Source: Agromyces agglutinans (lineage in GTDB: Bacteria > Actinomycetota > Actinomycetes > Actinomycetales > Microbacteriaceae). From it: a stretch of 64,000 nucleotides of DNA. Where the stretch lies: the NCBI RefSeq assembly GCF_009647605.1, contig NZ_WJIF01000013.1, forward strand, positions 1-64,000. The letters run 5' to 3'. Below are positions 28,564 through 46,119 of the stretch, piece by piece (the first letter of the stretch is position 1; each line of letters opens with the position of its first letter). The notes below the pieces were generated by a model that was not told where the DNA came from, ran no database searches, and saw nothing but the letters and a program-made list of their open reading frames with translations. The translations under genes and the position numbers were made by a program.

Positions 28564-29514
28564 ATGGTGTCGGGCGAGGTGCGAGCAGCGGTTCCGACGG
28601 CTGCACCCCGTGAGGCCGGCGCCGAGAGCTCGCCCGCCTGGGAGGTGTTCGTCGGCGAGCGGTTCATCGCCGCGTTCGCCGCACCCGCGCCGGCGCGCGT
28701 GGCCCTCGCGTTCACCGAGGCGGCGAACGGACCGACCGCCGACCTCGAGGACCTGGTCGGGAGGATCCCGCTCGGCCCCGACGGCGTCGAGACGTTCGCG
28801 CTCATGTGGTGGCCGCCGACCGGCGACACCGTGACCGCCGTCGTCCGCGGCGACGCCGCGGTCGACCTCGCCTCGCCGGGCGGCCGGCGGCGGCTCGACG
28901 CGAGCGGCATCCGGCCGTGGCACCTGGCCGACTTCCGCGACGTGATCGCCTTGCGCGTCTCCTCGAGCGGCGCGCCGCTCGATGCGATGGACGATGCGGA
29001 TGCCGCTCCGGTCGAGCCCTCCCGCCGGTTCCGCGCGCGCTCGGTCGAATGGCACGCGGTGGCCGGCGCCGAGGTCGCCAGCCCCGAGGCGCGCGGCGAC
29101 GACGCCGGTGGCGCCGCCGGCGCCGAGGCATCCGCACCGGCGAGGTCGATCGCGTTCCGGATCGCCGGCGGCGAGCTGCGGCGATCCGCGGTCCCGGTGC
29201 TGATCGGCCGGCGTCCGAGCCGGCCGCTCGCGCTGCCCGAGCCGGTCGAGCTGATCCGCGTCGAGGGCGGCACCGGAGCGCTCTCGGCCACCCACCTCGA
29301 ACTGCGACTCGAGGGCGGCCGCATCGTCGCGACCGACCTGCGCTCCACGAACGGCACGGTCGTGCGCACCGGATCGGGCACGCGGCGCATGCGCGCGGGC
29401 GAGTCGATCGTCGTCGCGCCGGGCACGGTGCTCGAACTCGGAGGCGATACCATCGTCGAGATCCTCCCGACCCAGGACGATCAGGCGCATCCCGACAGGC
29501 AGGCCCCCGCGTGA
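28564..29514 (+). CDS. FHA-domain protein, first gene of signalling locus
   Basis: 316 residues. The N-terminal ~150 residues resemble no domain I recognise (they begin AWEVFVGERFIAAFAAP). A low-complexity Ala/Gly/Asp linker follows, then a C-terminal FHA domain with VLIGRRPSRPL, a Ser-Ala-Thr-His region and the phosphothreonine-binding S261-T265 (STNGT). It overlaps the phosphatase gene as GTGA. FHA domains bind phosphothreonine, so the product is a likely reader of the kinase encoded two genes on. A -10-like CAGACT lies 7 nt before the ATG. Confidence 0.85.
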   Translation: MVSGEVRAAVPTAAPREAGAESSPAWEVFVGERFIAAFAAPAPARVALAFTEAANGPTADLEDLVGRIPLGPDGVETFALMWWPPTGDTVTAVVRGDAAVDLASPGGRRRLDASGIRPWHLADFRDVIALRVSSSGAPLDAMDDADAAPVEPSRRFRARSVEWHAVAGAEVASPEARGDDAGGAAGAEASAPARSIAFRIAGGELRRSAVPVLIGRRPSRPLALPEPVELIRVEGGTGALSATHLELRLEGGRIVATDLRSTNGTVVRTGSGTRRMRAGESIVVAPGTVLELGGDTIVEILPTQDDQAHPDRQAPA

Positions 29515-43137: not shown

Positions 43138-46119
43138 ATGCCGGACCCGAACGACGACCTCGACCTCCCGCTCGCGCTTCCTCCGGCGCCGCCCGACGAG
43201 CCGCGCCCGGGCTTCCCGGTGCTCGCCTCCCTGGCGCCGGTCGCGGGTGCGCTCGCGCTCTGGTTCGTGACCGGGTCGCCGCTCTCGCTCGCCTTCGCGG
43301 CGTTCGGCCCGATCGTCGCCGTCGCCTCGATGCTCGACGCGAGGCGGCAGGTCGCCAAACGGCTGCGGCGCGCGCGGCGCGACCGCGAGTCCGCGCTCGC
43401 GGCGCTCCGAGACGAGCTGGGCGGGCGGCAGGCCCGCGAGCTCGAACACGCCCGGCGGCTGCATCCTTCGGCGCGACGCGCGCTCGCGGCTCCGCCGGGC
43501 GCGCTCTGGCGCCCGGCGGCACCCGCCGCCGTGGTGCTCGGCACGGGCCGGGCGGCCAGCGGCGTCCGCGTCACGGGCACGCCCGTCGATGATGCCGACC
43601 GCGAGCTGCTGGCGCTCGCGCGGCGTCTCGACCGGGCGCCGATCACCGTGGAACCCGGCGCCGGCATCGGCATCGTCGGCCCGCGCCTGCTCGCGCGCGC
43701 GGCCGCGCGCGCCGTCGTGGTGCAGCTGGCGGCCCGCTGCGCGCCCGGGGGAGTCGGGTTCCGGTTCCCCCAGGATCCCGAGTGGTCCTGGGCGGCCGGG
43801 CTTCCGCACGGAGGCCGCGACCCGCTGGTGCACGTGATCGAATCCGACGAGGCGTCGGCCGCGCGCACCGCCGCCGACCACTCCGACGGATGGCTCGTCG
43901 CCGTGGCATCCGATGCGGCGCAGTTGCCTCCCGGCGCTGGCACCGTCCTCCGGCTGCACTCGCCGCGCGACGGCGTCCTGGAGCGCGAGCGCGGGCTTCC
44001 GGCCGGTCGGCGGCTGGTGCCCGACCTCGTCTCGATCGAGGAGGCGTCGGCCTGGGCGAGCGCCGCGTCGGCCGCCGCCGATCGCGCGGGGCTCGCGGCG
44101 GGTGCTGCGCGGCTGCCCCGCTCGGTACCGTTCGAGACGCTGGCCCAGCCCGCGCCCGACCCCGCCGGGCGTGGTTCGCTCGCCGCGGTCGTCGGCGCCT
44201 CCGCGCCCGGGGCGGACGGATCCGTCGAGCTCGACCTGGTCCGCGAGGGTCCGCACGCGCTCGTCGCGGGCACCAGCGGCAGCGGCAAGAGCGAGTTCCT
44301 CATCTCCTGGCTCGCCGCCCTCGCGGTGGCGCACCCTCCGGAGCGCGCGGCGTTCCTGCTCATCGACTTCAAGGGCGGTGCGACCTTCGAGCCGCTGCGC
44401 GGCCTGCCGCACGTGGCCGGCATCGTGACCGACCTCGACGAGGCCGAGGCTCGTCGGGCGGTCGAGAGCCTGCGCGCGGAACTGCGGCACCGCGAGCACG
44501 TGCTGCGCGCCGCCGGCGCGCGCGAGATCGCCGCGCTCGCTCCCGAGGTCGCGCTGCCGCGGTTGGTCATCGTGATCGACGAGTACCAGGCCATGGTCGA
44601 CCGATTCCCCGAGGTCGGACAGGTGATCGCCGACATCGCCGCCCGGGGCCGATCCCTCGGGGTGCATCTCGTGCTGGCCGCGCAGCGGCCGAACGGCGTC
44701 GTGCGCGAGCAGGTGACCGCGAACTGCGGCGTGCGGGTGTCGCTGCGCGTCCTCGACCGGGCCGACAGCATCGCCGTGATCGGCACTCCCGCCGCCGCGT
44801 CGCTCGATGCCGAGTCGCCCGGCCGCGCGGTGCTCGCGACCGCCGAACGCAGGCCGATCGAGTTCCAGGCCGCCTTCACCTCGAGCGGCGCGCTCGAGCG
44901 CATCCGAGCCGCGGCGGACGGTGCGCCCGCGCGCCGTCCGTGGCTCGACCCGCTGCCGAGGGTCGTCGAGCCCGCCGATCTGGCGAAGCTCGTCGTCGCC
45001 GACGCAGCGGGCGTTCGCGGCACCGATGCCGAGGCGACCCCAGCCGACACGACGGCGGCCGGCCGGGGCGTCGTCTTCGGCGTGGTCGACGAGCCCGAGC
45101 GGCAGCGCCGGAGCCTCGCGCAGTGGCATCCGGAGGCCGATGGCCACCTCCTCGTCGTCGGCGGTGCCGGCAGCGGACGATCCGGCGCGCTGGGATCGGT
45201 GGCCCGCAGCTTCGCCGCGCGACACGGCGGTGACGCGGTGGTCGTGCTCGGCGGTCCGCGAAGCGGAGAGTGGGACCGCCTCCACGAGGAGCTCGCGAGG
45301 GTCCGCGCGGCCGCGTACTCGGGCCCACGGCTGCTCGTCGCCGACGACCTCGACTCGCGCCACCGAGCGTGGCCCGAGGAGCATCGCCACGCCGTCGCGG
45401 CGACGCTTGAGGCGCTGTTGCGCGAAGGACGGGCGACGGGCCTTCGCCTCGCGGCCTCGGCGACGAGCGTGCAGGCGCTGGGCTCCGGCATCCGCGAGGG
45501 GTTCTCCTCGACCCTGCTGCTGCGGCACCCGAATCGCGGCGAGCTCGTTCACGCCGGCGGCGTCGGCGACCTCTGGCGGGCCGACGAGCCGCCGGGGGCC
45601 GGCCAGTGGCGCGGCGGCCGGGTGCAGGTCGTGCGCACCGGACCGCCGCCGGCGTCGGCCGAGCGGCCCGTCGCCCCGCTCCGACCGCCCAGCGACCGGC
45701 CGCTCGCGGTCGTGACCGACTCGGTCGTCGCCGATGCTGCCGCGCTCCGGCCGGGCGCAGGGCGAGAGGTCGTCGAGCTCGGGGCGAACCCAGCGTCCGC
45801 CCGCCACGCGGCTGCCGCGGTCGAGGCCGGGGGAGCGCCGATCGTCGTCGGCGACGGCGACGCGTGGGCGATGAACTGGGCGCTGCTGGCCGGCATCCGC
45901 GAACGCGGACCGCTCGTCGTGCACGGCGGCCCGGCCGAGTACCGTGCGGTCGTGCGCGACCGGCGGGTGCCGCCGCTGCTCGACGACGGACGCTCCCAGT
46001 GCTGGCTGCTCGAAGCCGGGGCCGCTCCGGTGCGCCGGGCTTGGCCGGCCGCCCCGGCCGTCCCGGCGGGCCCCGATCGGAGCGCGCATCCGGGCCTGCG
46101 CGAGCCTCCGCGAGGGTGA
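43138..46119 (+). CDS. EssC/SpoIIIE-like FtsK-family ATPase
   Basis: 993 residues. Two close N-terminal membrane segments (about 24-64), then a helical region and FtsK/SpoIIIE domains. The first has Walker A GTSGSGKSEF (K384), FLLIDFKGGATFEPL, LVIVIDEYQAMVDRFPEV and LAAQRPNGVVREQV, closely resembling type VII secretion EssC/EccC D1. The second has GAGSGRSGAL with R681 in place of the P-loop lysine, so it probably binds ATP poorly or not at all. A shortened third region (~850-993) lacks a P-loop. No FHA domain is fused, unlike Firmicute EssC. An in-frame ATG at 43120 is an alternative start. Likely motor of export for the locus; substrates unknown. Confidence 0.88.
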   Translation: MPDPNDDLDLPLALPPAPPDEPRPGFPVLASLAPVAGALALWFVTGSPLSLAFAAFGPIVAVASMLDARRQVAKRLRRARRDRESALAALRDELGGRQARELEHARRLHPSARRALAAPPGALWRPAAPAAVVLGTGRAASGVRVTGTPVDDADRELLALARRLDRAPITVEPGAGIGIVGPRLLARAAARAVVVQLAARCAPGGVGFRFPQDPEWSWAAGLPHGGRDPLVHVIESDEASAARTAADHSDGWLVAVASDAAQLPPGAGTVLRLHSPRDGVLERERGLPAGRRLVPDLVSIEEASAWASAASAAADRAGLAAGAARLPRSVPFETLAQPAPDPAGRGSLAAVVGASAPGADGSVELDLVREGPHALVAGTSGSGKSEFLISWLAALAVAHPPERAAFLLIDFKGGATFEPLRGLPHVAGIVTDLDEAEARRAVESLRAELRHREHVLRAAGAREIAALAPEVALPRLVIVIDEYQAMVDRFPEVGQVIADIAARGRSLGVHLVLAAQRPNGVVREQVTANCGVRVSLRVLDRADSIAVIGTPAAASLDAESPGRAVLATAERRPIEFQAAFTSSGALERIRAAADGAPARRPWLDPLPRVVEPADLAKLVVADAAGVRGTDAEATPADTTAAGRGVVFGVVDEPERQRRSLAQWHPEADGHLLVVGGAGSGRSGALGSVARSFAARHGGDAVVVLGGPRSGEWDRLHEELARVRAAAYSGPRLLVADDLDSRHRAWPEEHRHAVAATLEALLREGRATGLRLAASATSVQALGSGIREGFSSTLLLRHPNRGELVHAGGVGDLWRADEPPGAGQWRGGRVQVVRTGPPPASAERPVAPLRPPSDRPLAVVTDSVVADAAALRPGAGREVVELGANPASARHAAAAVEAGGAPIVVGDGDAWAMNWALLAGIRERGPLVVHGGPAEYRAVVRDRRVPPLLDDGRSQCWLLEAGAAPVRRAWPAAPAVPAGPDRSAHPGLREPPRG

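What the first reader, a model, noticed from the sequence alone, without database searches (positions are those of the whole stretch)
28564..46119. Nine-gene phospho-signalling, giant surface protein and EssC-like motor locus
Seen: FHA, PP2C, membrane kinase, 1963-residue Ig/Fn3 protein, MoxR, DUF58, transglutaminase-fold, zinc-ribbon/FHA and EssC-like ATPase genes on one strand, with overlaps or tiny gaps at most junctions. Known: FHA reads phosphothreonine, MoxR works with DUF58, EssC/EccC powers type VII export. Inference: one machine that exports or assembles the giant protein (or unknown substrates) under kinase control. It lacks EccB/D/E, mycosin, EsaA/EssA/EssB and WXG100 genes, so it is not a standard type VII system.
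Basis: partly seen in the sequence, partly recalled or inferred. Interest (0 to 1): 0.82.

Follow-up and report, generated by a model that had tools for sequence, protein, structure and literature searches.

The report
Kinase-controlled EssC motor and giant-protein cluster
A soil bacterium carries a conserved gene cluster that joins a protein-export-type motor, without the small partner proteins such motors normally need, to a giant surface protein and a kinase switch, and it ties together two gene clusters that we saw described only separately.

Summary
The nine genes are real, co-oriented and tightly packed. In 60 fetched Microbacteriaceae loci, the six core genes keep this order in 37 and all nine do in 32. 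Kinase-Fn3-MoxR-DUF58-TGM is the order of the bifidobacterial PFNA operon. The last gene is a shortened EccC/EssC ATPase: membrane pair, DUF, D1, D2, reduced D3. It lacks the N-terminal FHA module of longer relatives; an FHA gene lies just upstream in 45 of 60 loci. One of 60 loci holds a WXG100 gene, and that one (L075) has a long-type ATPase; none of 80 named loci does. In 16 of 100 family genomes a full-length EssC lies near PFNA-type TGM, with WXG100 seen in 11 of the 16. All or part of the set stands beside EssC in nine other families. So the window probably holds a WXG100-less relative of a type VII-like system. The 'transglutaminase' lacks catalytic Cys and His in 81 of 81 aligned rows. 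Dedicated export of the giant protein is not supported: it has its own N-terminal hydrophobic segment, and the motor also occurs without it.

The parts
28564..29514 (+). FHA1: FHA-domain protein, 316 aa; pThr-binding residues kept
   Evidence: PF00498; G215 R216 S241 H244 N263 G264 in 30 of 30
29511..30311 (+). PP2C phosphatase, 266 aa
   Evidence: PF13672/NF033484, the latter below its cut-off; Asp53, Asp133, Asp207 in 51 of 51, Asp246 in 50 of 51
30448..31878 (+). Ser/Thr kinase with one hydrophobic segment (358-392) and a short domain behind it; start could be 30373 or 30400
   Evidence: PF00069; K44, HRD, DFG in 35 of 35
31878..37769 (+). Giant 1963-aa Ig/cadherin-like/Fn3 protein with N-terminal hydrophobic segment 11-36 (PFNA fn3 counterpart)
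   Evidence: PF17963 six stretches and others; N-terminal hydrophobic segment in 36 of 36 orthologues, C-terminal in 2 of 36
37797..38768 (+). MoxR AAA+ ATPase, 323 aa
   Evidence: PF07726; Walker residues in 38 of 38
38770..40077 (+). DUF58 membrane protein, 435 aa
   Evidence: PF01882; hydrophobic 47-98
40074..42497 (+). TgpA-fold pseudo-transglutaminase, 807 aa; catalytic Cys and His positions replaced
42494..43033 (+). ZFHA: zinc-ribbon + FHA protein, 179 aa
   Evidence: FHA in 33 of 36 members; R95 S119 H122 N141 G142 in 41 of 41
43138..46119 (+). Short EssC/EccC-type ATPase, 993 aa: TM pair, DUF, active-looking D1, partly degenerate D2, reduced D3; start could be 43093 or 43120
   Evidence: AlphaFold2 pLDDT 90.4; EccC matches; D1 Walker residues in 60 of 60

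Best explanation
The locus is a WXG100-less relative of an actinobacterial type VII-like system that carries the PFNA genes. Shown: gene content, order, conserved active-site residues, wide conservation, and loci with full-length EssC, WXG100 and the same genes. Inferred: a membrane kinase, opposed by PP2C, phosphorylates threonines on membrane partners. The two FHA proteins bind those sites. ZFHA, which stands in for the FHA domain fused to longer EssC proteins, couples this signal to the membrane EssC ATPase. MoxR with DUF58 remodels or assembles the membrane part. The TgpA-fold pseudoenzyme is a multi-pass scaffold, not a cross-linker. The giant Ig/Fn3 protein, exported by Sec and anchored at its N-terminus, forms the wall-spanning outer part (shaft, sensor or conduit). 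The EssC motor works on cue to move an unidentified substrate, or to drive a conformational change of the envelope complex.
For: Six core genes in order in 37 of 60 loci, all nine in 32 of 60; TGM upstream of EssC in 46 of 80 named loci, among them Agromyces, Cryobacterium, Leifsonia and Humibacter. In two split genomes, G002 and G033, the PFNA part has no PP2C and the separate EssC part has it. Long EssC within about 22 kb of PFNA-type TGM in 16 of 100 family genomes, WXG100 in the fetched part of 11 of these 16; all or part of the set with EssC in nine other families. FHA gene within 2.5 kb upstream of short EssC in 45 of 60, FHA fused to EssC in relatives. Active-site conservation. Structure. 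Pseudoenzyme. Garrett 2024 predicts a large Ig-like TsdI as a possible envelope conduit in T7SSd.
Against: No substrate is known, and absence of WXG100 argues against ordinary type VII export. 6 of 60 short-EssC genomes lack any match to the giant protein's N-terminal domain and 9 of 51 genomes with PFNA-type TGM lack short EssC; in G028 FHA1, PP2C and ZFHA stay with PFNA though no short EssC was found. 14 of 60 loci have PP2C (some with FHA) just upstream of EssC and no TGM in the stretch; G077 has PP2C in both places. 15 of 60 lack a detected FHA gene within 2.5 kb. D2 lacks the Walker lysine in 27 of 60. Bifidobacteria keep PFNA although a type VII/WXG100 system was reported there only for B. 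choerinum and B. dentium (PMC4965825 passage), so PFNA can exist without it. One short-EssC group in the tree has support 45 only. No interaction was tested.
Confidence: 0.48

Rival explanations
1. Dedicated exporter: the EssC-like ATPase secretes or assembles the giant Ig/Fn3 protein under kinase control.
For: Linkage of the two genes in order in 37 of 60 loci; association of short EssC with PFNA-type TGM over 100 genomes p = 4.7e-6.
Against: N-terminal hydrophobic segment of the giant protein in 36 of 36, which suits Sec; 6 of 60 short-EssC genomes show no giant-protein N-terminal domain, and PFNA without short EssC exists.
Confidence: 0.12
2. Two independent modules that merely sit together: a PFNA envelope operon and a PP2C-ZFHA-EssC module with its own task; the nine-gene order reflects old linkage.
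For: 14 of 60 loci with PP2C just upstream of EssC and no TGM in the stretch; EssC without giant protein and PFNA without short EssC; FHA-EssC proteins of other families without PFNA genes nearby; bifidobacterial PFNA mostly without a reported type VII system.
Against: Order kept in 37 of 60 loci over many genera; PP2C lies with EssC and is absent from the PFNA part in G002 and G033; long EssC + PFNA + WXG100 loci in several families.
Confidence: 0.27
3. The short EssC is a working type VII exporter that uses WXG100 proteins encoded elsewhere in the genome.
For: The genome has WXG100 matches on four other contigs; those on C26 and at C20:370k and 449-451k have no EssC-type match within about 60 kb on their contigs, so they could serve it; D1 is intact in 60 of 60.
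Against: WXG100 genes on C3 and C12 lie by their own EssC or by EccB and a YukD-type gene; the short EssC has a reduced D3, and ATPases 2 and 3 of T. curvata EccC were solved with a signal peptide (title of 4n1a; which domain binds it is recalled).
Confidence: 0.12

Closest known systems
PFNA operon of Bifidobacterium (pkb2, fn3, aaa-atp, duf58, tgm, + prpC, hypothetical, fha)
   Same: Five core genes in the same order: kinase, giant Fn3 protein, MoxR, DUF58, TGM; PP2C and FHA also present.
   Different: PP2C and FHA stand upstream here; an EssC-type ATPase and a zinc-ribbon FHA protein are added. 'FtsK' and 'type VII' do not occur in the main text of either PFNA paper. TGM lacks catalytic residues here; the bifidobacterial one was not tested.
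T7SSd (Olsenella, Bifidobacterium; Garrett 2024, PMC11217815)
   Same: EssC-type ATPase, membrane kinase (TsdD), large Ig-like protein with N-terminal signal (TsdI), FHA logic.
   Different: No WXG100 (TsdA) and no FHA fused to the ATPase here; MoxR, DUF58 and TGM are present, terms absent from that paper; no C-terminal hydrophobic segment on the giant protein in 34 of 36.
T7SSa / ESX (EccC)
   Different: No WXG100 at the locus; the genome's EccB match and its one YukD-type match are on contig C12.
TgpA of Pseudomonas aeruginosa
   Different: Catalytic Cys and His replaced; TgpA has the triad and activity (PMC3507681 passages).

Membership tests
Type VII secretion system (any subtype) | EccC/EssC membrane ATPase | tested here: met
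   but below the TIGR equivalog cut-offs
Type VII secretion system (any subtype) | WXG100 (TsxA) gene at the locus | tested here: not met
   0 of 11 PF06013 matches of this genome lie on contig C5. Own profile: 1 of 60 fetched loci (L075, whose ATPase has a long N-terminus) and 0 of 80 named loci; the two sets share 7 loci. The eight control loci L008-L015 were all recovered, but three of them (L008, L014, L015) hold genes used as seeds.
T7SSa | EccB at the locus | tested here: not met
   single match in the genome, on C12
T7SSa | EccE and mycosin | not tested
   no dedicated search; none of the nine proteins matched such families
T7SSb | EsaB/YukD, EssA, EssB, EsaA | tested here: inconclusive
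   YukD: one match in the genome, on C12 in a 523-aa frame. EssA, EssB, EsaA: only absent among matches of the nine proteins
T7SSd | N-terminal FHA on the ATPase | tested here: not met
   27 residues before the first TM here against 239-244 in three full-length relatives
T7SSd | Membrane kinase TsdD | tested here: met
   kinase with one hydrophobic segment; not compared with TsdD itself
T7SSd | Large Ig-like TsdI with N-terminal signal and C-terminal TM | tested here: inconclusive
   Ig-like repeats and N-terminal hydrophobic segment present; C-terminal one in 2 of 36
T7SSd | TsdH single-TM protein | not tested
   no sequence at hand
PFNA operon | kinase-fn3-MoxR-DUF58-TGM in this order | tested here: met
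   window; papers, passages
PFNA operon | Homology of each gene to the bifidobacterial one | not tested
   no named Bifidobacterium sequence was compared
Transglutaminase (active) | Cys-His-Asp triad | tested here: not met
   Cys 0 of 81, His 0 of 81 rows; the separate TgpA of the same genome has Cys and His

The most novel reading that the evidence does not exclude
PFNA genes are components of a broad actinobacterial type VII-like branch, and the Microbacteriaceae nine-gene cluster is a version in which the EssC motor has been freed from WXG100 export and re-employed as a phosphothreonine-gated engine of a wall-spanning Ig/Fn3 complex scaffolded by a dead transglutaminase.
Probability: 0.32. 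Interest if true: 0.78.

Novelty: new variant of a known kind. Interest (0 to 1): 0.6.

Why it matters
It joins two literatures that, in the papers looked into (two on PFNA, one on T7SS variants, two on bifidobacteria that mention WXG100), do not name each other's genes: PFNA, read as a host-signal operon, and type VII variants with kinases and Ig-like giant proteins. If right, PFNA functions such as adhesion and cytokine binding should be re-read as parts of a secretion-type envelope machine, and its 'transglutaminase' should be checked for catalytic residues before activity is assumed. It also makes testable whether EssC motors can work without WXG100 partners.

Tried and rejected
Defence-system reading: PADLOC gives the kinase best as mad6 (179 bits) and the ATPase as SspH and mad8 (106 and 96 bits), limited to kinase and FtsK/HerA-type domains, and NCBIfam mad6 is far below its cut-off (119 of 460 bits); none of the other seven proteins matched, so rejected. 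Phage origin: PHROGs gives FtsK-like and terminase matches for the ATPase only (four proteins searched). Ordinary FtsK: the best FtsK_SpoIIIE match of the genome is on C7. Sequence search of solved structures with TGM gave nothing; the fold search did. A D1 tree gave short EssC as one side of a branch with support 45 only, and the careful search did not finish, so no single origin is claimed. Sixteen other-family EssC loci (L218-L233): no kinase, Fn3, MoxR, DUF58 or TGM match and no WXG100 in any; weak FHA1 matches in L218, L221, L230 and a weak PP2C match in L224. In one search the row meant for the C11 TGM was a wrong reading frame and was not used; one search has that gene (L194). 'T7SSd' with Bifidobacterium and type VII secretion gave 0 papers; the paper came up by other terms.
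Full report
Observation. Nine + strand genes fill 28564-46119. Junctions are -4, +136, -1, +27, +1, -4, -4, +104; the next gene, an ABC substrate-binding protein by eye, starts 112 bases on. Families: FHA, PP2C, Ser/Thr kinase with one hydrophobic segment, 1963-aa Big_9/cadherin-like/fn3 protein, MoxR, DUF58, TgpA_N + Transglut_core, zinc ribbon + FHA, FtsK_SpoIIIE of the EssC/EccC kind. The best named matches are Agromyces at about 46-51% identity, so the host is probably Agromyces or near it in Microbacteriaceae (inference).

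Conservation. Of 100 family genomes (the window's own included), I list 60 with a short EssC, from the matches shown (cut at the weak end) and the frames. I fetched 60 loci: 59 of those plus G088. Kinase-Fn3-MoxR-DUF58-TGM-EssC stand in order on one strand in 37 of 60, and all nine genes in the window's order in 32 of 60. 14 have PP2C (some with FHA) just upstream of EssC and no TGM in the stretch; 9 fall in neither class, four of these on stretches shorter than 6 kb. Of 80 named loci with up to 10 kb flanks, 46 have TGM upstream of EssC and 34 have PP2C upstream without TGM; seven loci are in both sets. In G002 and G033 the PFNA part lacks PP2C and the separate EssC part carries it; G077 has PP2C in both. 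Short EssC and PFNA-type TGM (390 bits or more) over 100 genomes: both 42, EssC only 18, TGM only 9, neither 31; Fisher p = 4.7e-6, not corrected for kinship.

Results against a single dedicated machine. Six short-EssC genomes (G016, G030, G061, G063, G078, G097) have no match to the giant protein's N-terminal domain at E of 1e-5 (G061 is 75% complete). Nine genomes with PFNA-type TGM lack short EssC (G003, G004, G019, G024, G028, G031, G035, G055, G087). In G028 the PFNA part keeps FHA1, PP2C and ZFHA. In bifidobacteria PFNA is described for all gut-dwelling human species, while a type VII/WXG100 system is reported as new for the genus in B. choerinum, with a similar cluster in B. dentium (PMC4965825, passage). 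PFNA can therefore exist without such a system.

WXG100. PF06013 matches in this genome lie on C3, C12, C20 and C26, none on C5. A profile seeded with WXG100 proteins of the own C3 locus and of L082-L084 recovers all eight control loci L008-L015 (three hold seed genes). It finds one hit in the 60 fetched loci, L075, and none in 80 named loci. L075 has a 1324-aa ATPase frame with about 265 residues before its first TM, so it is the long kind. L016-L074 extend only about 1.3 kb downstream, and some are cut by contig ends.

Link to type VII. In 16 of 100 family genomes a long EssC and a TGM match lie within about 22 kb (a lower bound, as the list was cut): G002, G004, G007, G011, G017, G026, G043, G045, G049, G050, G056, G077, G082, G086, G087, G093. 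WXG100 was detected in the fetched part of 11 of them: G002, G011, G017, G026, G043, G045, G049, G050, G077, G086, G093. For example G011 reads Fn3-MoxR-DUF58-TGM-ZFHA-PP2C-FHA-kinase-EssC-WXG100-WXG100. Outside the family, all or part of the set stands with EssC in L174, L175, L176, L178/L179, L180 and L181 and L234, L236 and L237: nine families by handle (f2, f57, f16, f44, f5, f58, f72, f4, f66). L180 and L181 show no Fn3, PP2C or FHA match and only weak TGM (42 bits); in L176 TGM is weak (49 bits) and EssC is on the other strand. WXG100 was seen in L176, L178, L234, L236 and L237. Of 20 non-family genomes with a DUF58 match at E of 1e-25, 6 have EssC within 20 kb; these are 6 of the 10 with E of 1.3e-30 or better, a cut chosen after seeing the list. 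At an assumed 3% chance each, p = 2.0e-5 for 6 of 20 and 1.4e-7 for 6 of 10.

The giant protein has an N-terminal hydrophobic segment in 36 of 36 orthologues and a C-terminal one in 2 of 36, which suits Sec insertion and N-terminal anchoring (inference).

Mechanism. Kinase active-site residues (35 of 35), PP2C Asp53, Asp133 and Asp207 (51 of 51; Asp246 50 of 51) and the FHA residues listed under parts (30 of 30 and 41 of 41) are kept. A reversible phosphothreonine switch read by FHA1 and ZFHA is the simplest reading; its targets are unknown. The EssC motor, MoxR/DUF58, the pseudo-TGM scaffold and the Ig/Fn3 shaft would form one envelope complex.

Literature. PMC8430577 and PMC6803598 (passages) describe PFNA; 'FtsK' and 'type VII' occur in neither main text. 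PMC11217815 (abstract, section 9 and passages) describes T7SSd with a kinase and the Ig-like TsdI; 'MoxR', 'DUF58', 'transglutaminase', 'fibronectin' and 'Microbacteri' do not occur in it. PMC4965825 and PMC9415070 (passages) mention WXG100 in bifidobacteria but not PFNA, FHA or fibronectin. PMC3507681 was seen in passages. Searches for papers joining the themes showed no listed title that does so; one search listed 10 of 57 papers, and only open-licence PMC papers are held.

Noticed in passing
G000 contig C3:84000-92000 (L076): A second type VII-like locus of the same genome: three WXG100 genes, an 1801-aa gene, a ZFHA paralogue and a 1443-aa EssC.
   Followed up: partly
G000 contig C12:780-6319 and end of C20 (L078, L080): ESX-like pieces: WXG100 genes, one YukD-type match in a 523-aa frame, EccB, and near the end of contig C20 a 1623-aa EccC-like gene.
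   Followed up: partly
L195 (C1:517-527k) and L194 (C11): Two further MoxR-DUF58-TGM sets in the same genome, one with a giant Fn3 gene, neither with an EssC match in the fetched stretch.
   Followed up: partly
L227, L229, L231: EssC-like ATPases without a detected WXG100 beside genes that look like Tad pilus parts (names by eye, no search), in other Micrococcales families.
   Followed up: no
L219-L224, L226: EssC-like proteins of 982-1309 aa (FHA match in the three scanned: L219, L222, L226; L222 just under cut-off), several next to small membrane proteins and WhiB-like or PAS-kinase-like genes (by eye).
   Followed up: no
L023, L034: The split EssC arrangement sits beside an alanine-dehydrogenase-like gene and, some genes off, the ATP synthase operon (names by eye).
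   Followed up: no
G000 contigs C26:49.6k, C20:370k and C20:449-451k: WXG100 matches with no EssC-type match near them: possible orphan partners.
   Followed up: no
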